A DNA stretch of 64,000 nt. Source: Algisphaera agarilytica. Its GTDB lineage: Bacteria > Planctomycetota > Phycisphaerae > Phycisphaerales > Phycisphaeraceae. Both the position numbers and the translations under genes were made by a program. Positions 26,236-37,500 of this stretch are shown here, piece after piece. The notes under the pieces were generated by a model, which worked only from the letters and a program-made list of their open reading frames with translations, had not been told where the DNA came from and made no database searches. The DNA lies in NCBI RefSeq assembly GCF_014207595.1, contig NZ_JACHGY010000001.1:3876212-3940211 (forward strand), in the 5' to 3' direction. Numbering within the stretch: position 1 is the stretch's first letter; each line of letters opens with the position of its first letter.

Positions 26236-27097
26236 TCACGTCGATCGATCCAGCAACCGGTACTGGATCGCCTCGCCCACATGGGCGACCGTGATGTCAT
26301 GGCACTCTTCCAGGTCGGCGATGGTCCGCGCGACGCGGCGCACTTTGTCGTACGCCCGGGCGCTCAGGCCGATGGAGGTCATGGCTTCTCGGAGGAGTTC
26401 TTTGGCCTGCGGTTCGAGTGGCGCAACTTCGTCGAGCTCGCTGCCGGACAAGACACGGTTGGTCTTGAGTGGTCCGCCATTGCGCTCGGCCTGGCGTGCC
26501 CGCGCTTGGACGACACGCTGACGGAGTGTGGCCGAGTCGGTGCCGTTCTTCTCGCCGGTGAGTTGTTGGTAGGGCACGGGCGGGACTTCGACGTGGATGT
26601 CGACGCGGTCGATGAGCGGACCGGAGATCTTGGCCATGTACTTGTCCATCGCGCGTTGGCTCACGTCGTCGGTGGGCTTGCTGCCCTTGGGCGTGGGGTT
26701 CATGGCGGCGACGAGCATGAACCGGGCGGGGAAGCGGATCGAGCCCTGAGCCCGGGCAATGGTGACGTGGTTGTCTTCGAGCGGTTGGCGGAGCGTTTCG
26801 AGCACGGCCCGCGGGAACTCGGGCATCTCGTCGAGAAAGAGCACGCCGTGGTGGGCGAGCGACACCTCGCCGGGCCGGGGGATCGCGCCGCCACCCACCA
26901 CGGCGAAGGGGCTGGCGGTGTGGTGCGGGCCTCGCACGGGGCGGGCGGTCATCAGCGACTGGCCTTTGGGGACCTGACCGATGGACGAGTAGATGCGTGT
27001 GACCTCTAACGCCTCGTCACGCGACAAGGGCGGGAGGATGCCGGGCAAGGCTTTTGCGCACATGCTTTTTCCCGTACCCGCCGGGCCGATCATCATG
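26236..27097 (-). pseudogene. comM: ComM/YifB family ATPase, C-terminal part, cut off by the element
   Basis: This is the 3' part of comM (yifB), about 287 codons. It begins at MMIGPAGTGKSMCAKALPG (Walker A) and includes VLFLDEMPEF (Walker B), the AAA+ core and the Mg-chelatase-like C-terminal domain to YRLLDRS. ComM is a hexameric helicase that helps branch migration in natural transformation. The N-terminal domain lies 10.4 kb away at 37482-38138. Joined at CATG the two parts give about 505 codons, the normal family length. This half has no proper start or promoter of its own, so it is probably inactive. Confidence 0.93.
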
Positions 27098-27119
27098 ACA
27101 TTAGCGCTAATTTAACCAA
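27083..27119. other. Left attachment junction (attL)
   Basis: Host sequence gggccgatcat is followed by core CATG (27094-27097), then ACATTA and the attP arm GCGCTAATTTAACCAA (27104-27119). The arm is the inverse of the one at the right junction. Confidence 0.85.
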
Positions 27120-27274: not shown

Positions 27275-27934
27275 GTGAAACAATCAAGACGAAGGGGCGT
27301 CCGCCGCCCCCGGCACCACTACTGGCCAAGTGAAGACATCCGACACATCGACGACATCCCACCGGGCACGCCCACCGTGCTGTATTGCCGCGTGAGCGGC
27401 TCCCGCCAAGACCCGGAGCCGCAAACGCAAGATCTAATCCAAGCGGCCGCCGCCGCAGGATTGCCCGTGGTGGGCGAGCGGTGCCACACCGGCCCAGCGG
27501 GCGAGGCGTTGGCCGCAATACGCGAGGCGGCGATCCTGGCGGCCGAGCACGGCGGCGTGGTGTTGGCGACGGGGACGACCCGCTTTGCCCGTGCCGCCGC
27601 GTGGCAGACCGGCGAGCAGGACAACGTGCGGGCAGGCCAGCACACCATCAAGGAAGTATGCGAAGCCGCCGGGGTGCCGCTGGTGACGGTGCTGCACCCG
27701 GATACCCCACCGCGTGAAGAACGCGAGTACCACGCCCGGTTAGGACGCACCGCGAAGCCACCCGCCGGGCGAACACCGAATAAGCGACCGGGATATAAGA
27801 AGCGGCGGCGCTTGAAGCTACTGCCCCGCGTGCTACGCATGCGGCTGGATGGTTACAGCAACCGGGGGATAGGACGCGAACTTGGGGTGGCGGAAAAAAC
27901 GGTCCGTGATTGGCTAAAACGATGCGACGCATGA
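27275..27934 (+). CDS. Divergent serine recombinase (resolvase-like) with C-terminal helix-turn-helix
   Basis: The start is the GTG at 27275 with AAGGAAG four bases upstream (219 residues). Residues about 30-150 look like a serine-recombinase domain: TVLYCRVSGSRQDPEPQTQ holds the catalytic Ser in RVS. In the later motif, where most relatives have DRLxR, this protein has TTRFAR, so the Asp is missing while both Arg remain. After a basic linker (KKRRRLK) comes a helix-turn-helix (YSNRGIGRELGVAEKTVRDWLKR). It could resolve or invert element DNA, or act only as a regulator. Confidence 0.7.
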   Translation: MKQSRRRGVRRPRHHYWPSEDIRHIDDIPPGTPTVLYCRVSGSRQDPEPQTQDLIQAAAAAGLPVVGERCHTGPAGEALAAIREAAILAAEHGGVVLATGTTRFARAAAWQTGEQDNVRAGQHTIKEVCEAAGVPLVTVLHPDTPPREEREYHARLGRTAKPPAGRTPNKRPGYKKRRRLKLLPRVLRMRLDGYSNRGIGRELGVAEKTVRDWLKRCDA

Positions 27935-28159: not shown

Positions 28160-29251
28160 ATGGCCTCAAAATACAAAGTAATTGACCTATTTGCCGGAGC
28201 CGGGGGACTGAGCCTTGGCTTTCGCCAAGCTGGGTTTGAGGCTGTTTTTGCTGTTGAGAAAGAGCCCGACTTCGCGAAGACCTATGCCGAGAATTTTGGC
28301 AGCCACATCGTCGCCTCTAGTATCGAGGACGTTGTTGCTTCGGGTATTTGTCCCAAGGCGGATATCGTTGTTGGCGGGCCACCATGCCAGGGGTTCTCAA
28401 ACCTCACGGGCAATAAACGTTCTGATCCTAGACGCAAGCTTTGGCAGTATTTCATGGACGTCGTAGAGTCGTCCGACTGCAAGGTTTTTGTGTGTGAAAA
28501 TGTGCCAAACATGCTTACCTCGGCGGAGGGTACCGCACTCATACGGAGGGCACGTAAACTTGGATTCCATGTCACCGATGACAGCATGGGTGTTTTGCTA
28601 GCGAGCGAGTATGGCACACCGCAGAATAGGCGACGGTGCATAATCATCGGTTCAAAGCTAGGGCCTACCAAACTACCAAAACCAAATGGTGAGAAGCGAA
28701 CGGTGCGGGACGCATTTCAGTCGATTCCTTTAAAGCCTATTCACAAAGATCTGCATGCAACTCCTGCTAGCGGATCTGACTTGCACATTGCCCGTAACCC
28801 CACAGAGCTTTCACTCAAGCGATACAAACTAATTCCACCCGGTGGCAACCGGTTTGATTTACAACGGTTGGCACCCGAACTAACTCCGGGCTGCTGGATA
28901 CGTAAAACATCCGGAGGCACGGACCTGTTTGGACGCCTTGAGTACGACGGCCCTGCACGCTGCACAATCAGAACAGAGTTCTATAAACCCGAAAAGGGTA
29001 GGTACCTCCACCCGAAAGCTGACCGACCTATCACACATTGGGAAGCCTCACGCCTACAAGGTTTCCCCGATGACTTTCGATGGCATGGAACCAAAATTCG
29101 AATCGCGATACAAATCGGTAATGCTGTACCACCTCCACTAGCGAAGGCAATCGCCGAGAACGTTAAGAAGCATCTTCGCGAATTCAAACATAGACCAACG
29201 TCACGCCCAGCAAAGGCTGATCTAAGGCAGCTTTCATTGCTTCCTAGCTAA
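28160..29251 (+). CDS. DNA (cytosine-5) methyltransferase
   Basis: The 363-residue enzyme starts at ATG 28160 after an AAGGAAG site. It has the ordered C5-methyltransferase motifs: DLFAGAGGLSLGF (I, SAM), GGPPCQGFS (IV, catalytic Cys), ENVPNM (VI), QNRRR (VIII) and GNAVPPPLAKAI (X), with a target-recognition region between VIII and X. It probably protects DNA from the HNH endonuclease encoded tail to tail with it (8-base overlap). GC content is well below that of the host genes, a sign of transfer. Confidence 0.93.
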   Translation: MASKYKVIDLFAGAGGLSLGFRQAGFEAVFAVEKEPDFAKTYAENFGSHIVASSIEDVVASGICPKADIVVGGPPCQGFSNLTGNKRSDPRRKLWQYFMDVVESSDCKVFVCENVPNMLTSAEGTALIRRARKLGFHVTDDSMGVLLASEYGTPQNRRRCIIIGSKLGPTKLPKPNGEKRTVRDAFQSIPLKPIHKDLHATPASGSDLHIARNPTELSLKRYKLIPPGGNRFDLQRLAPELTPGCWIRKTSGGTDLFGRLEYDGPARCTIRTEFYKPEKGRYLHPKADRPITHWEASRLQGFPDDFRWHGTKIRIAIQIGNAVPPPLAKAIAENVKKHLREFKHRPTSRPAKADLRQLSLLPS

Positions 29252-30053
29252 GCGACTTTGATCCACGCTTTTGAGCGGACTTGGCAATTTCCGCCTTGAT
29301 ATTCGCTGGCCATGGCCTAGAAGAAATAAGCTGATACGCGAAACGTGCGGCTCCGCTTTCACCCTTCGCCCGCACAGATTTTACTTCCCAACCAAGGTCG
29401 CGTAGCTCGCGAAGCCGACGAGTCCATTCATCATCTTGCCCAACAATCTCAAGCAAACGGCGTGGAACTATCTGTCCATCAAAAGCCTTAAGTAGTTCGC
29501 CGAGTCGCTGTATCGGTAGCTCGAAATTCATGCATTTACGCATGAGGTCTGCGTCAAGCGACGCAAAGAAATCCTTCTTTCCACCATTACATTCTTCGCA
29601 TAGGGCTTCGAGGTTTTCAATATCATTTGATCCACCCCAGTTGCGAGGGACCTTGTGATCTACAACTAGCTTAACTCCGTCTTCTTTAACAGTCAGTCCG
29701 CACATTTGGCATCTCCGCCCTGCTCTATGCATGACTTCTGCACGGTCCTTAGCACTAATCGAGTGTGGCTGCTTGTGCTCAAGCGTCGGCTCAATTGATT
29801 CAAGGGCATAGAGAAACTGACGATTTCGACGCCCTTCAACACGTCGAGCGTTCCAGCCCGCATCTCTTAGTTCTTGTATCCGTTTCCGGAGTTGTTGCTG
29901 CTCATGAGGCTCGAACCCCATTACGGCACGGATTTCATTTAGCGTTACGGGCTGGGCAACACCCAAACTGATAAAAGCTCGAAGTAGTGTTTGGTGAAAC
30001 GGGCCAAGACGCTCTTCTGCAAGATTCGGAATCGGAATTGAATTCAAGTCCAC
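29244..30053 (-). CDS. HNH endonuclease, likely type II restriction enzyme
   Basis: The 269-residue protein has a central HNH domain (about 107-170) with a zinc knuckle CQMCG..CEEC and the active-site stretch VVDHKVPRNWGGSNDIENL. On each side lies a similar winged-helix-like unit: RKRIQELRDAGWNARRVEG near 57-75 and RRLRELRDLGWEVKSVRA near 215-232. Its location facing a cytosine methyltransferase and overlapping it by 8 bases marks the pair as a restriction-modification system. The recognition sequence is not predictable from this view. It is the only minus-strand gene of the element. Confidence 0.85.
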   Translation of the reverse strand: MDLNSIPIPNLAEERLGPFHQTLLRAFISLGVAQPVTLNEIRAVMGFEPHEQQQLRKRIQELRDAGWNARRVEGRRNRQFLYALESIEPTLEHKQPHSISAKDRAEVMHRAGRRCQMCGLTVKEDGVKLVVDHKVPRNWGGSNDIENLEALCEECNGGKKDFFASLDADLMRKCMNFELPIQRLGELLKAFDGQIVPRRLLEIVGQDDEWTRRLRELRDLGWEVKSVRAKGESGAARFAYQLISSRPWPANIKAEIAKSAQKRGSKSLS

Positions 30054-30235: not shown

Positions 30236-30589
30236 ATGGCAACCGCAACGAAGAAGACGACCGCAGCGACCACAACCGCGAATAAGAAGGCGACGGCGAA
30301 ACAAACCGCACCGGTAGATGAGCAACCGACGGCCGCCAAGCCCAAACCGAGGAAGCCCAAGGCCCCCGGCGTACAGGCGAAGGTGACCCGGCCCTACCTC
30401 GCCGGGCAGATCATCGCCAAGCACGGTTTGGCCGCGGGTGTGACCCCGGCCATGGTGGCCGAGTTGAACGAGGCGTACGGCAAGCCGAACGACGTTGAAT
30501 CTGCCTTCTGCCTGAAGAATGCCCACCACGCCATCCGTGGTGCGACCGGCCTAGCCGAAGACCAAGCGTACGAGGACGCAGCTAGCTGA
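30236..30589 (+). CDS. Small basic histone-H1-like protein
   Basis: The 117-residue protein starts MATATKKTTAATTT and its first about 55 residues are Lys/Ala/Thr/Pro rich, like bacterial H1-type DNA-condensing proteins. The C-terminal about 60 residues (KVTRPYLAGQIIAKHGLAAG to RGATGLAED) look like a small helical domain I do not recognise. AAAGGAG lies seven bases before the ATG. It may bind element DNA or help its packaging; this is inferred. Confidence 0.65.
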   Translation: MATATKKTTAATTTANKKATAKQTAPVDEQPTAAKPKPRKPKAPGVQAKVTRPYLAGQIIAKHGLAAGVTPAMVAELNEAYGKPNDVESAFCLKNAHHAIRGATGLAEDQAYEDAAS

Positions 30590-30640
30590 ATACCAAACGC
30601 CCCGGCACGGCGGGCCGCAACACCCGGTTACAATTACGTG

Positions 30641-31114
30641 ATGCTCAGATACGCCGCATTTGCGTTTGCCTTCTTGTTATCTACCTCGACTCAGGCCGAC
30701 ACTCTGACCGGCCGTGTCGTGGGCGTGAGTGACGGCGACACGATTACCATCCTGATTGATAAAGAAGAAGTAAAAATCCGCCTTGAAGGCATAGACGCCC
30801 CCGAGACGGGGCAGGCATTTGGTACGCAAGCTAAGAAGGCATTGTCCGATCAAGTATTTGGCGAGGATGTTGCCGTCGTTGTTACCGATACCGACCGCTA
30901 CCAACGCAAGATCGGCAGGGTGTACGTGAAAGTGAGAGGCAAGACCCGCGACATCAATCTCGCTATGGTCGCGGCGGGCATGGCCTGGCACTACACCGCC
31001 TATAGTGACGACCCCGAACTGGCCGAAGCCGAAGAAACTGCGAGGAAGAAACGCCGAGGCCTATGGCGTGATCCGGACCCGATGCCGCCGTGGGAGTGGC
31101 GGAAACAGAACTAA
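30641..31114 (+). CDS. Exported SNase-like (thermonuclease) nuclease
   Basis: The 157-residue protein starts with a signal peptide (LRYAAFAFAFLLSTSTQA) followed by a staphylococcal-nuclease domain. Visible family motifs are VVGVSDGDTITI, KIRLEGIDAPETGQAFG and TDRYQRKIGRVYV, which hold the calcium Asp residues and the catalytic Arg/Glu. It should cut DNA and RNA outside the cytoplasm. The ATG at 30641 is preferred over an overlapping GTG one codon before. Confidence 0.9.
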   Translation: MLRYAAFAFAFLLSTSTQADTLTGRVVGVSDGDTITILIDKEEVKIRLEGIDAPETGQAFGTQAKKALSDQVFGEDVAVVVTDTDRYQRKIGRVYVKVRGKTRDINLAMVAAGMAWHYTAYSDDPELAEAEETARKKRRGLWRDPDPMPPWEWRKQN

Positions 31115-31516
31115 TCTTGCTAGGTTAATCACCTCTCCTGACACCATTGTTAGCACCGGCCATGCCCCGCCCCGCGGCGGGGAATGTCATCCCCCTGCAT
31201 GCCCTTACACCCCTCTTATCAACTAGACGGCCCGCGAGCCCAAGCCGGGGACCGACGCGGCAGGTGGCCGACAGGCCCACGAGAGAACGCGACCCCTAAC
31301 AAAGCGACCATTGCCGGGGCAACCTCCACCCATCACCGCGAAATACAAGTGAAACGAGGGATGATTTTGCGGCTTGCTATCGCGTCGGCGCTAGATTTTT
31401 CCAAATTAGTGAAAACTTTTTTACCGCGAGCCACAGTATGGGGTTACGTGCCGAAATGATGCCCAAAACATTGAAATCAGAAAAAGGAAACTTCGACTCA
31501 CATCGAATCTGTATAT
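31115..31516. other. Gene-poor stretch inside the element
   Basis: No convincing protein gene lies here. The first half is GC-rich with short hairpins (CCCCGCCCCGCGGCGGGG near 31163). The second half, from about 31360, is AT-rich and includes TTTTTTACC runs, suggesting a promoter or origin-like region. GGCGCTAGATTTTTCCAAAT at 31387-31406 resembles the attP arm but with an extra base and two changes. Confidence 0.45.
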
Positions 31517-31548
31517 GGCGGGTGTGTTATGCCCGCCGAGAGACACCC
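31517..31548 (+). promoter_or_regulatory. Leader hairpins before the gene at 31566
   Basis: GGCGGG (31517-31522) pairs with CCCGCC (31532-31537); GGGTGT (31520-31525) can instead pair with ACACCC (31543-31548). The two pairings exclude each other. A ribosome site AAGGAG follows, as in the leader at 30177. Confidence 0.5.
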
Positions 31549-31565
31549 TAACAAGGAGACAGACG

Positions 31566-31898
31566 ATGAGACGTGGTGACAGTGAATATGACGAGTACGA
31601 AGAGCACAAGATTCAGACTTTCGATGATTATTTGGCCATGCTCCGCCGGAGCTACCACCTGATGCGGAAGTTGAATCATAGCGATCCCAACGAAGAAGCC
31701 GTGAGGCGAAGAGTGGCTACGGCAGTGAGTTTCATTGTGGAAGAAATCTACGTATGGAACCTGCAAGCCTCCGGGTGGGACACCGTAGGCGACGCTGTGA
31801 AGGCCCTTGTCCCGCCCCCTTATGGGAACCCGGAATGCATGTGGGCACTCGAAGAGGTAAATCCCGAGAGAGGCCAAGCGAGCAGCCCGAGGGCGTAG
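31566..31898 (+). CDS. Hypothetical 110-residue element protein
   Basis: The start ATG follows AAGGAG by seven bases. The protein is acidic at its N terminus (GDSEYDEYEEHK) and mainly helical in the middle, with no motif I recognise. Its leader resembles that of the H1-like gene, which suggests shared control. No function is proposed. Confidence 0.6.
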   Translation: MRRGDSEYDEYEEHKIQTFDDYLAMLRRSYHLMRKLNHSDPNEEAVRRRVATAVSFIVEEIYVWNLQASGWDTVGDAVKALVPPPYGNPECMWALEEVNPERGQASSPRA

Positions 31899-32081: not shown

Positions 32082-32672
32082 ATGCAAAAGAAGGTTGCGG
32101 TTTATATCCGCGTGAGCACCACCGGGCAGAACGAAGCGGGCCAACGCGAGGCGATAACCGCGTGGCTCAAAAATCATGGTCACGACATACTCATGGTCAC
32201 TTGGCACGTGGAACGCTACACAGGGACGACAACCACCCGTCCCGCGTTAGACCAACTACAGGCCGCCATCTTTAGGGGCGAGCACGAGATGGTGGTGACA
32301 TGGCGTTTAGATCGCCTAAGCCGCAAACAGCGTGACGGAATCAACCTCCTTGCCAACTGGTGTGACGCGGGCGTACGCGTTGTTTCAATTAGCCAACAGC
32401 TTGACCTTAGCGGTGCGACCGGCCGCCTGATAGCCGGGGTGCTGTTTGCCGTGGCCGAGATGGAATTAGAGACGATGCGGGAGCGACAGAGGGTAGGAAT
32501 TGAGGCAGCAAAGCAGCGAGGCGTATACCAAGGACGCGTACCCGGCACCACTAAGGCGAAGCCCACCCGTGCCGCCGAGCTACGCGACCGGGGGCTAACG
32601 CAGGAGGAGATTGCAACGGCTCTTGGCGTGAGCCGGACGACCGTAAATCGATACCTAAGAAAGGTTGGCTAG
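32082..32672 (+). CDS. Small serine recombinase (resolvase/invertase)
   Basis: The 196-residue protein is a complete member of the small serine recombinase family. VAVYIRVSTTGQNEAGQ holds the catalytic Ser, TWRLDRLSRKQRD the DRLxR active-site Arg residues, and a helix E region (GVLFAVAEMELETMRERQRVG) leads to a C-terminal helix-turn-helix (LTQEEIATALGVSRTTVNRYL). It probably resolves dimers or inverts a segment of the element. It lies 92 bases before the TerS-like gene. Confidence 0.9.
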   Translation: MQKKVAVYIRVSTTGQNEAGQREAITAWLKNHGHDILMVTWHVERYTGTTTTRPALDQLQAAIFRGEHEMVVTWRLDRLSRKQRDGINLLANWCDAGVRVVSISQQLDLSGATGRLIAGVLFAVAEMELETMRERQRVGIEAAKQRGVYQGRVPGTTKAKPTRAAELRDRGLTQEEIATALGVSRTTVNRYLRKVG

Positions 32673-32764: not shown

Positions 32765-33139
32765 ATGATCATGCCCACCAAACGCAAAGACATCACTGCG
32801 ACCTTCAAACCCATGTTTTGGGATGACCTAGATGGTCGCACCGGCACCGCCCCAAACATCCGCGACCGGTACATGACGCTAAAGGCGGACGCGGGGGCCG
32901 TGAGCCGCCAACGCGACATCCTTTGCCAGCGTGCGGTGTTTATGTGCGTGTGCCTCGAAACAATGGAGTGTGAGGCGGTGGCCACGGGCAAGTTCGACGC
33001 CGGGGTCTACACGCAGATGAGCAACGCTCTCCTCGGCTTACTCAAAGCCCTTGGCCTTGAACGCCACGTGAAGAAGGCGGGCGGCCTCAAGGACTACATC
33101 CGCGAGCGGCAGGCCGAAGCCGAGGAGGTAGCCGCGTGA
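32765..33139 (+). CDS. Phage terminase small-subunit-like protein
   Basis: The 124-residue helical protein overlaps the TerL gene start by 4 bases (GTGA), the usual terS-terL arrangement. It ends in GLERHVKKAGGLKDYIRERQ, resembling the C-terminal region of several small phage proteins that precede TerL. Similarity is weak, so the call leans on position, size and coupling. TerS normally binds phage DNA and directs TerL. ATG 32771 is an alternative start. Confidence 0.6.
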   Translation: MIMPTKRKDITATFKPMFWDDLDGRTGTAPNIRDRYMTLKADAGAVSRQRDILCQRAVFMCVCLETMECEAVATGKFDAGVYTQMSNALLGLLKALGLERHVKKAGGLKDYIRERQAEAEEVAA

Positions 33140-34557
33140 ACATCATCGAAGCCATCAAAGACCCGCAACTATTCCGGCATTGGCTTGCCCCGGATGGAAA
33201 CCTCCGGAGTTGGCAACCGTGGCTTGCGGCATTGCGTTCGCTCTACCACATCCCAGGCAAAGGTAAACACGGTGCCCGCCTCGCCGCCCAGGCCACCGGG
33301 CATAGCCCGAGTGTGATTAACACATACGCCCCCTACGACGTGGGCCTATTCCTTACCGGCCGCCGCTCCGGCAAGAGCCGCATCGCCGCCGTGATTGCCG
33401 CGTATGAGGCCGTATTGGCGGGGCACCAAAAGAAGCTGGCCCCCGGCGAGGTTGGCGTGGTGCCGGTGCTGGCCCCCACCATGAAGCAGGGCCGGATCGT
33501 AAAAGGCTATCTCCGGGCGATCTTCGATCTACCCCTCCTACAGGGTGAGCTTGCAACCGAAACGGCCGAAGGCTTCACCCTACACGATGGTACGCGGATC
33601 GAGATCATGGCCGGTGATTACCGGAAGGTTCGTGGCTACACGCTCCTTGCCGCCATCATCGATGAAGCCGCGTTCTTCCAATATGAAGACACGGCGAAGG
33701 TGAACGACACGGAGTTGGTGCGTGCCCTACGGCCTAGCCTTGCCACCACGCAGGGGAAGTTGATTGCAATCACCAGCCCGTACGCACGGAAGGGTTGGTG
33801 TTGGTATGCCTACCGCACCTACCACGGAAGCCATGCCCGCACATGCTCGGCCGCCCTCATTTGGCAGGCCCCAAGTCGCACGATGAACCCCACCCTCCCG
33901 CAGAAGGTGGTGGATGATGCGTTGCGAGAAGACTACGCAGCGGCCAAGAGTGAATACCTCGCCGAGTTCCGCGACGACGTGGCCGCATACGTGGACCGCA
34001 GCGTGGTTGAAGCCGCCACCGACGCGGGAACACCCGAGCGATTGCCCCGGCCCCACACCGCCTACACCGCGTTTGCCGACCTGAGCGGGGGCCGCAACGA
34101 CGACGCGGCGTTGGCCATCGCCCACAAGGAGGGTGAGCGGGTCATCATCGACTACGCCCGCCAGTGGCGGCCCCCGCACAACCCCACCACGGTTATTGAG
34201 GACATGGCCGCTGAGCTACGGCGTTACGGCATACGGCGTTGCACCGGCGACAACTACGCGGCCGAGTTTGTCGCCGGTGCGTTCCGTGCCAACGGCATCA
34301 CCTACAAACGTGCCCCGCTTCCAAAGTCCGGGCTCTACATGGAATTTCTGCCCCGGCTCACCTCCGGCCTTATCACGCTGCCCGCCAACCCCGTGCTGGC
34401 CGAGCAGCTTTGCAACCTTGAGCGGCGAACCCGTGCGGGGGGCCGCGACATCATCGACCACCCCCCGGGCGGCCACGACGACCTGGCTAACGCCGTTGCG
34501 GGCGTAGCCACCACCGCCGCTACCCCGGCCCGCCTTGTTGGGGCGTTGGCCATCTAA
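33136..34557 (+). CDS. Phage terminase large subunit (TerL)
   Basis: The 473-residue protein has both TerL domains. The ATPase domain (about 60-260) has Walker A TGRRSGKS and Walker B LLAAIIDEAAFF. The RNase-H-like nuclease domain (about 300-460) has ADLSGGRNDDAALAI with the first Asp, TGDNYAA and the late HDDLANAVAG with the final Asp. TerL cuts DNA and pumps it into a procapsid. No portal, protease or capsid gene follows, which is unusual. It is the largest gene of the element after the integrase. Confidence 0.92.
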   Translation: MNIIEAIKDPQLFRHWLAPDGNLRSWQPWLAALRSLYHIPGKGKHGARLAAQATGHSPSVINTYAPYDVGLFLTGRRSGKSRIAAVIAAYEAVLAGHQKKLAPGEVGVVPVLAPTMKQGRIVKGYLRAIFDLPLLQGELATETAEGFTLHDGTRIEIMAGDYRKVRGYTLLAAIIDEAAFFQYEDTAKVNDTELVRALRPSLATTQGKLIAITSPYARKGWCWYAYRTYHGSHARTCSAALIWQAPSRTMNPTLPQKVVDDALREDYAAAKSEYLAEFRDDVAAYVDRSVVEAATDAGTPERLPRPHTAYTAFADLSGGRNDDAALAIAHKEGERVIIDYARQWRPPHNPTTVIEDMAAELRRYGIRRCTGDNYAAEFVAGAFRANGITYKRAPLPKSGLYMEFLPRLTSGLITLPANPVLAEQLCNLERRTRAGGRDIIDHPPGGHDDLANAVAGVATTAATPARLVGALAI

Positions 34558-34575: not shown

Positions 34576-35046
34576 ATGATCGAAGACCTGACACCCGGCC
34601 AACGAGTAGCCCGTTTTGACGCCCAGCATGGCCCCGGCGGCGAACGCGATGAGGCTTGGCTCTATTTCCCCGATGGTGCACGCCGCGAGCTGAACCCCAT
34701 GGGTGCCCTGTGCGAGCCGCCCCGGGACGAAGCCGAGCGGTGCCGACTCATCGCCCATTACCACCGCACCATCGTCAACCGCCTTGTGCGGACGTTTGAC
34801 GATAAGAAAACGCTCTACACGGAAAACGCCAGCCAGTACGACCATGAGGAGTGCATGGCGGAACTGAAAAGCCTGAAGGCCGAGATTACGACGGCCCGTG
34901 AGGCGTTGGCGGAAGCCGAGGAAGCCGAGCGGTATGCCCGCACCGGCCGCACCCGCGAGGAGGAGGCCCGCTACCAGCAGATGGAGGCGGACCACGCAGC
35001 GGAACGTGAGCGGCGACGCAAAGAACTCGAAGGGATCAACGTATGA
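34576..35046 (+). CDS. Hypothetical coiled-coil protein of the element
   Basis: The 156-residue protein begins MIEDLTPGQRVARFDAQHG and its C-terminal half (about 95-150) is a long charged helix rich in Glu, Ala and Arg, likely a coiled coil. A ribosome site ATGGAG precedes it, 18 bases after terL. Its stop overlaps the start of the next gene (ATGA), suggesting coupling. Function unknown; a packaging or scaffolding helper is only a guess from position. Confidence 0.65.
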   Translation: MIEDLTPGQRVARFDAQHGPGGERDEAWLYFPDGARRELNPMGALCEPPRDEAERCRLIAHYHRTIVNRLVRTFDDKKTLYTENASQYDHEECMAELKSLKAEITTAREALAEAEEAERYARTGRTREEEARYQQMEADHAAERERRRKELEGINV

Positions 35047-35318
35047 ACACTACCACTAGGAATATACCCATGATGTTTTACGACGACGGTTTGCCACTAC
35101 CGGTTATGAACTTTGGTAACCCGGACCCACGCCCCCCGGCGTGCGGGGCGGATGATGTGGACGACATGCTGCAACTGCCGGTGATGAACTTTACCGGCAA
35201 CGGCGACAAACGCCCCGACACGGGCGAGGTTGGCCAGCAGCACCAAAGCCCCCAGACCACCACGACAAACGCGGCACGCGGCAACGACGGGCTACTCCCG
35301 TTGCCGAGCACGCTGTAA
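35043..35318 (+). CDS. Small element protein with repeated LPVMNF motifs
   Basis: The 91-residue protein has two copies of a short motif, DGLPLPVMNFGN near residue 15 and DMLQLPVMNFTGN near 41, and a shorter DGLLPLPSTL at the very end. Between them the chain is Pro/Asn/Gln/Thr rich and probably disordered. No domain is recognised. The repeats could be binding motifs for a partner protein. It is translationally coupled to the coiled-coil gene. Confidence 0.6.
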   Translation: MNTTTRNIPMMFYDDGLPLPVMNFGNPDPRPPACGADDVDDMLQLPVMNFTGNGDKRPDTGEVGQQHQSPQTTTTNAARGNDGLLPLPSTL

Positions 35319-37459: not shown

Positions 37460-37500
37460 TTGGTTAAATTAGCGCCAATAGCATGAGGTTGTGCCCGCCC
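37460..37500. other. Right attachment junction (attR)
   Basis: The attP arm TTGGTTAAATTAGCGC (37460-37475) is followed by CAATAG, core CATG (37482-37485) and host sequence aggttgtgcccgccc from comM. Confidence 0.85.

What the first reader, a model, noticed from the sequence alone, without database searches (positions are those of the whole stretch)
32765..34557. TerS-like and TerL genes in an element with no capsid, portal or tail genes
Seen: a complete TerL with ATPase and nuclease motifs, preceded by a coupled small gene. No other virion gene is recognised in 10.4 kb. Known phage satellites such as PICIs usually carry TerS only and borrow the rest. Inferred: this may be a new satellite type that brings its own packaging motor, or a remnant prophage.
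Basis: partly seen in the sequence, partly recalled or inferred. Interest (0 to 1): 0.82.

Follow-up and report, generated by a model that had tools for sequence, protein, structure and literature searches.

The report
Phage satellites with own packaging motor
A 10.4-kb mobile DNA element in a planctomycete bacterium keeps a complete, apparently working virus DNA-packaging motor but no gene for the virus shell, its entry port or its tail, and many bacteria carry relatives, which suggests parasites of viruses that use their own motor to load themselves into another virus's particles.

Summary
TerS-like (32765-33139) and TerL (33136-34557) genes lie in a 10,388-bp element between CATGA copies in comM. 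Joining the flanks restores an intact ComM, and the relatives in which comM was found whole lack the interruption. The element encodes no portal, capsid or tail protein, and no unassigned ORF on its coding strand is long enough to hide a portal.

It is not a lone remnant. Nine planctomycete TerLs form one clade. The mappable elements keep the order resolvase-TerS-TerL-(usually a 156-aa protein)-large serine integrase, but sit in different genes. More distant relatives occupy 6-18-kb elements in Proteobacteria and other phyla, 17 of them bounded by tRNA repeats, and small plasmids. TerL catalytic residues are invariant in 63/63 relatives and dN/dS is 0.09-0.15. Some elements carry one or two virion genes (protease, capsid or tape measure); no portal was found in them.

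Limits: true phages with portals share this TerL family at 37-41% identity, so satellites probably took the motor from such phages. Packaging itself is untested.

Best reading: phage satellites that package their own DNA with their own TerS-TerL docked on a helper's portal, between PICIs and cf-PICIs. One relative sits inside a prophage capsid gene.

The parts
27094..27098 (.). left junction core CATGA inside comM (attL)
   Evidence: joining at CATGA restores an intact ComM reading frame; a 16-bp inverted sequence GCGCTAATTTAACCAA / TTGGTTAAATTAGCGC lies just inside both ends
27275..27934 (+). left-end resolvase-like / HTH protein (c73), function unknown
   Evidence: homologues at the left end of L011, L012 (tblastn E 6e-11, 2e-18) and similar proteins in L144, L145
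28130..29251 (+). C5 cytosine DNA methyltransferase (cargo)
   Evidence: Pfam PF00145 E=1e-57; this stretch is 50.5% GC against 62.5% for the packaging module
29244..30053 (-). HNH endonuclease, convergent with the methyltransferase; probable restriction partner (inferred)
   Evidence: Pfam PF01844 E=4.5e-12
30236..30589 (+). 117-aa lysine-rich basic protein, unknown
   Evidence: similar lysine-rich proteins near the same place in L010, L012, L144, L145 (22-27% identity)
30638..31114 (+). staphylococcal-nuclease-like protein with hydrophobic N-terminus
   Evidence: Pfam PF00565 E=5e-27
31515..31898 (+). small ORF of unknown function (127 aa)
   Evidence: no match in Pfam; only a weak PHROG match at E=0.028
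32082..32672 (+). small serine resolvase/invertase
   Evidence: Pfam PF00239 E=3e-33; a resolvase lies near TerS-TerL in 23 of 72 related loci
32765..33139 (+). TerS-like small terminase subunit (124 aa)
   Evidence: homologues upstream of TerL in 50 of 72 loci; AF2 model resembles viral TerS
33136..34557 (+). TerL large terminase subunit, catalytic motifs intact
   Evidence: phrog_2 E=2e-24; motifs invariant in 63/63
34576..35046 (+). 156-aa protein (c16), short beta region plus long helices; conserved in planctomycete elements, unknown
   Evidence: homologues at TerL+1 in L008, L009, L010, L011, L012; AF2 pLDDT 91, no confident fold match
35043..35318 (+). 91-aa low-complexity protein with repeated LPVMNF motif
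   Evidence: motif or a variant in the proteins at the same place in L008, L009, L011, L144, L145
35552..37453 (+). large serine integrase
   Evidence: PF00239, PF07508, PF13408; phrog_95 E=3e-57
37482..37486 (.). right junction core CATGA inside comM (attR)
   Evidence: as left junction

Best explanation
The element is a phage satellite, a mobile parasite of tailed phages. A large serine integrase inserts it at specific sites (here comM) and removes it (integration shown by the junctions; excision inferred). When a helper phage is active, the element is thought to excise, multiply by a route not identified here, and use its own TerS to recognise its DNA and its own TerL to pump that DNA into empty heads whose shell, portal and tail come from the helper (inferred). 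The 156-aa and 91-aa proteins after TerL may adapt the motor to the helper's portal or shell (guess). The methyltransferase/HNH pair is probable restriction-modification cargo (inferred).
For: Precise insertion, intact empty site, and whole comM in relatives. Planctomycete relatives keep the module and share a TerL clade (99/97 support), yet sit in different places: comM, a YjbQ-like gene, a tRNA, a phage capsid gene, probably nfo. TerL active sites invariant 63/63 and dN/dS 0.09-0.15, 0.15 for a planctomycete pair. No portal, capsid or tail gene in the planctomycete elements, only DUF2213/head-protease-like proteins in four of them. Relatives elsewhere are 6-18-kb elements with integrase, often primase, TerS and TerL, 17 of them bounded by tRNA repeats. 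No portal was seen among 101 proteins downstream of TerL in the listed families, nor in the large ORFs scanned. Co-resident prophages: the window's genome has a separate prophage with portal and capsid, and 7 of 8 carrier genomes encode a portal. PF05136 alone is in 6/8 carriers against 48/244 planctomycetes (Fisher p=0.0014, relatedness not corrected).
Against: No experiment shows induction, packaging or transfer. No pac/cos site was identified and no replication gene was recognised in the window element. Phages with portals share this TerL family, so descent by gene loss is possible. TerL-portal pairing is usually specific (own knowledge), so docking on a foreign portal is an assumption. The TerS assignment rests on position and a moderate fold match. 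TerL has no detectable similarity to the resident prophage's TerL, so nothing ties the two together. No relative was found in 50 other genomes of the family.
Confidence: 0.68

Rival explanations
1. A remnant of a full prophage that lost its head and tail genes and keeps terminase by chance.
For: Full phages with this TerL family exist (portals in L067, L069, L072, L074). Some relatives carry isolated virion genes.
Against: The same compact layout recurs at different insertion sites in different planctomycetes. TerL is under strong purifying selection with intact active sites in all 63 relatives. Joining the flanks restores comM exactly. One genome holds two related elements with near-identical end and resolvase modules but TerLs that differ strongly.
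Confidence: 0.13
2. The terminase pair serves another purpose, such as element replication, concatemer resolution or plasmid maintenance, and the element is not packaged.
For: Relatives occur on small plasmids with ParA and VapE and without head genes apart from DUF2213. A resolvase often sits beside TerS-TerL.
Against: Both ATPase and nuclease motifs and a TerS partner are kept. Several elements add head protease, capsid or tape-measure genes, which point to particles. Satellite-plasmids are known (PMC13230959).
Confidence: 0.1
3. A very small virus whose shell proteins are too divergent to recognise.
For: Several small proteins have no match (P0003, P0006, P0010, P0011).
Against: No unassigned coding-strand ORF reaches 200 aa, too short for a portal; the 156-aa protein's confident model is mostly helical and matches no capsid or portal.
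Confidence: 0.04

Closest known systems
Phage-inducible chromosomal islands (PICIs, including SaPIs)
   Same: Size, site-specific integrase, small terminase subunit; many proteobacterial relatives also have integrase, AlpA-like and primase order.
   Different: PICIs are described as bringing TerS, or a protein that redirects the helper's TerS, and using the helper's TerL (PMC10690885); here a full TerS-TerL pair is kept.
[quoted passage not shown]
   Same: Carry both terminase subunits; some relatives here also lie on plasmids; an HNH protein is present.
   Different: cf-PICIs also encode portal, protease, capsid and connectors; none of these is in the window element.
Streptomyces satellites MulchRoom/MiniFlayer
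   Same: Own TerS and TerL, helper-dependent.
   Different: They carry portal, capsid and scaffold (PMC10690885).
Mycobacterial PICI-like elements such as phiRv1
   Same: PICI-like integrated elements, some with serine integrases and some with terminase genes.
   Different: Defined by carrying a major capsid gene (PMC10654092).
PISP TG93 satellite-plasmid of Vibrio
   Same: Plasmid satellite with small terminase and head protease, like the Komagataeibacter plasmid relatives.
   Different: Encodes capsid protein E; no TerL is mentioned in the passages read (PMC13230959).

Membership tests
Phage satellite (general) | integrated element of about 7-20 kb with its own integrase | tested here: met
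   10,388 bp, large serine integrase, restored empty site; size range from PMC13376191
Phage satellite (general) | lacks a full set of virion genes | tested here: met
Phage satellite (general) | mobilised in particles made by a helper phage | not testable with these tools
   needs induction and particle sequencing; only co-residence of prophages was seen
PICI | uses the helper's TerL, bringing TerS or a redirecting protein only | tested here: not met
   own TerL with intact motifs
PICI | AlpA/Stl-type regulation and primase | tested here: not met
   none recognised among window proteins; present in many proteobacterial relatives
cf-PICI | own portal, head protease, major capsid and connectors | tested here: not met
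   none in the window element
cf-PICI | own TerS and TerL plus HNH endonuclease | tested here: inconclusive
   TerS-like and TerL present; the HNH protein lies next to a methyltransferase, away from the terminase genes, and looks like restriction cargo
Tailed prophage | portal, capsid and tail genes with TerL | tested here: not met
   absent from window and planctomycete elements; portals present in some contigs with distant TerL homologues
P4-like satellite | P4-type primase, Sid/Psu, helper terminase | tested here: not met
   no primase, Sid or Psu match in the window element; own terminase

The most novel reading that the evidence does not exclude
A widespread, undescribed class of satellites that carry a complete TerS-TerL motor but no portal, so the motor must work on a foreign phage's portal. 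Some add a single helper-replacing piece (protease, capsid or tape measure), and some planctomycete members insert into the capsid gene of a resident prophage.
Probability: 0.55. Interest if true: 0.85.

Novelty: new variant of a known kind. Interest (0 to 1): 0.72.

Why it matters
If true, it fills the step between satellites that borrow the helper's motor and those that bring motor plus head, and it makes testable whether a terminase can work on a portal it did not evolve with. It would extend satellites to planctomycetes and several other phyla, and give a sequence marker (portal-less TerS-TerL next to an integrase) that tools built on known satellite gene sets may miss.

Tried and rejected
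A plain-sequence scan of viral contigs with the window TerL found nothing; an alignment including plasmid homologues was needed. The idea that the TerL family is satellite-only was rejected after portals appeared in L067, L069, L072 and L074. A direct link to the resident prophage's terminase was rejected: no significant TerL similarity. Promoter and terminator scans did not exceed shuffles. The 156-aa protein gave no confident fold match. A core sequence for L144 could not be fixed. Cluster c7 joins VapE-type proteins with what looks like DNA polymerase I, so its L009 member was not counted as an element primase. The satellite survey PMC10085698 is not held, so its exact models were not checked.

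Full report
Observation. The element is bounded by a 5-bp core CATGA at 27094-27098 and 37482-37486 (10,388 bp). It interrupts comM; joining the flanks gives an uninterrupted ComM with ...GHNLMMIGPAGTGKSM.... In the relatives searched, comM matched as one uninterrupted frame wherever a full match was found, and only the window's genome shows two pieces with the element between (a few hits are partial, one genome had none). A 16-bp sequence is present in inverted orientation just inside both ends, as expected of the arms of a serine-integrase attachment site (own knowledge). Gene content from Pfam and PHROGs: methyltransferase, HNH, SNase, resolvase, TerL and large serine integrase; no portal, capsid or tail.

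Terminase. TerL matches phage terminases by PHROG profile and solved TerL nuclease domains. Alignment of 63 relatives shows invariant K80, E177, D315, D372, D448 and D449. dN/dS between close pairs from elements in Rhizobiales, Roseobacters, Halomonads and two planctomycetes is 0.09-0.15. The small upstream gene is shared by 50 of 72 loci. Its model best matches viral small terminases and, weakly, HK97 TerS, so the TerS assignment is likely but not proven.

Relatives. Pattern-based scans gave 57 genome loci and 69 viral-contig loci; about ten of the latter are close. The window TerL lies in a clade of nine planctomycete sequences (99/97). The planctomycete loci share resolvase, TerS, TerL and, in most, the 156-aa protein (not found in L013); where the contig reaches far enough a large serine integrase follows. 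Their insertion sites differ: comM in the window; a YjbQ-like gene in L144, with its two parts on either side (core not fixed); a tRNA at L009; apparently nfo at L145 (these gene names are from reading the translations, not from a family search). In Lacipirellula limnantheis (L012) the 12,305-bp element lies inside a major capsid gene (PF25209) of a prophage that has its own TerL and portal; excision in silico restores a 387-aa capsid frame. The L008 element abuts the 3' end of a homologous capsid gene. Genome G155 carries two elements with near-identical left-end and resolvase proteins but different TerLs (53% and 45% identity to the window), a sign of module exchange. Prevalence is low: 4 of 392 planctomycete genomes, 1 of 51 in the host's family.

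Outside planctomycetes, 17 elements are bounded by direct repeats at tRNA genes and are 6.4-16.2 kb; two more have clear repeats away from tRNAs. Their common layout is integrase, often AlpA-like protein and primase, TerS, TerL, then a few genes. Plasmid relatives include a Komagataeibacter plasmid (VapE, ParA, resolvase, small protein, TerL, DUF2213) and a 9.7-kb Roseomonas plasmid in which TerL is broken. Among 101 proteins downstream of TerL, head proteases, HK97-type capsids and tape measures appear in a few, and no portal among the families listed (only the 25 commonest families are printed). Ten of the large unassigned ORFs in the bounded elements were scanned singly: no portal, although L073 has a PHROG 'virion structural protein' of unknown role. 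A few large ORFs, mostly beside primases, were not scanned. HK97-type portals (PF04860) occur in 20 of 46 carrier genomes; their contigs were not all mapped, but the coordinates that could be compared do not fall in the elements.

Counter-evidence. Viral contigs L067, L069, L072 and L074 carry this TerL family with portal genes. L067 falls among rhizobial elements in the tree (96/80 with L044). So the family spans phages and portal-less elements; the direction of change is not settled, but recruitment of a phage motor, or reduction from phages, is likely.

Helper candidates. The window's genome has a separate prophage-like region (about 1.178-1.216 Mb) with portal and capsid by profile and a TerL-sized gene and long structural block around them by position. 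Seven of eight planctomycete carriers encode a phage portal somewhere, and PF05136 is over-represented in carriers (6/8 against 48/244, p=0.0014 without correction for relatedness). In L012 that portal belongs to the prophage that hosts the element. This fits, but does not prove, helper dependence.

Comparison with the literature. Published classes found are P4, PICI, cf-PICI, PLE, PICMI, satellite-plasmids, Streptomyces satellites and mycobacterial PICI-like elements. None of the papers read describes elements with TerS and TerL but no portal or capsid. The main satellite survey was not available and subscription papers are not held, so absence from the literature is not established.

Conclusion. 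Shown: an integrated element of defined ends with a conserved, selected TerS-like/TerL pair and no portal, capsid or tail gene; related compact elements in several phyla. Inferred: helper dependence, docking on a foreign portal, excision, restriction cargo. Not shown: packaging.

Noticed in passing
L012:2779-15089: In Lacipirellula limnantheis the related 12.3-kb element is inserted in the major capsid gene of a resident prophage; in-silico excision restores a 387-aa capsid frame.
   Followed up: yes
L008:3602-6389: Another related element abuts the 3' end of a homologous capsid gene, whose frame runs on into the integrase gene without its own stop.
   Followed up: partly
G000:C1 about 1178000-1216000 (L140-L142): Separate prophage-like region in the window's genome with portal, HK97 capsid and a long structural block; a candidate helper.
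   Followed up: partly
L144 and L145 (genome G155): Two elements in one chromosome with near-identical end and resolvase proteins but different TerLs and integrases.
   Followed up: partly
window:35043-35318: Small protein with repeated LPVMNF motif, kept in most planctomycete elements; possible docking peptide.
   Followed up: partly
window:28130-30053; L009:82-3400: Methyltransferase-HNH pair at lower GC in the window, and a methyltransferase-like gene with neighbours beside the L009 element: probable restriction cargo in the variable part.
   Followed up: no
L011:12348-12941; L144:12855-13541; L145:7400-7960; L013:4650-5177: DUF2213 / head-protease-like protein in four planctomycete elements but not in the window.
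   Followed up: partly
L020, L022, L023, L030, L035, L040, L046, L054: Bounded proteobacterial and acidobacterial elements that carry a tape-measure-like protein although no portal was found.
   Followed up: partly
L003, L004 (Komagataeibacter plasmids): Plasmids that hold two copies of much of a roughly 13-15-kb unit, as if the unit were dimerised.
   Followed up: no
L005:8253-8762: TerL of the Roseomonas plasmid is truncated at 169 aa, with a further open frame downstream.
   Followed up: no
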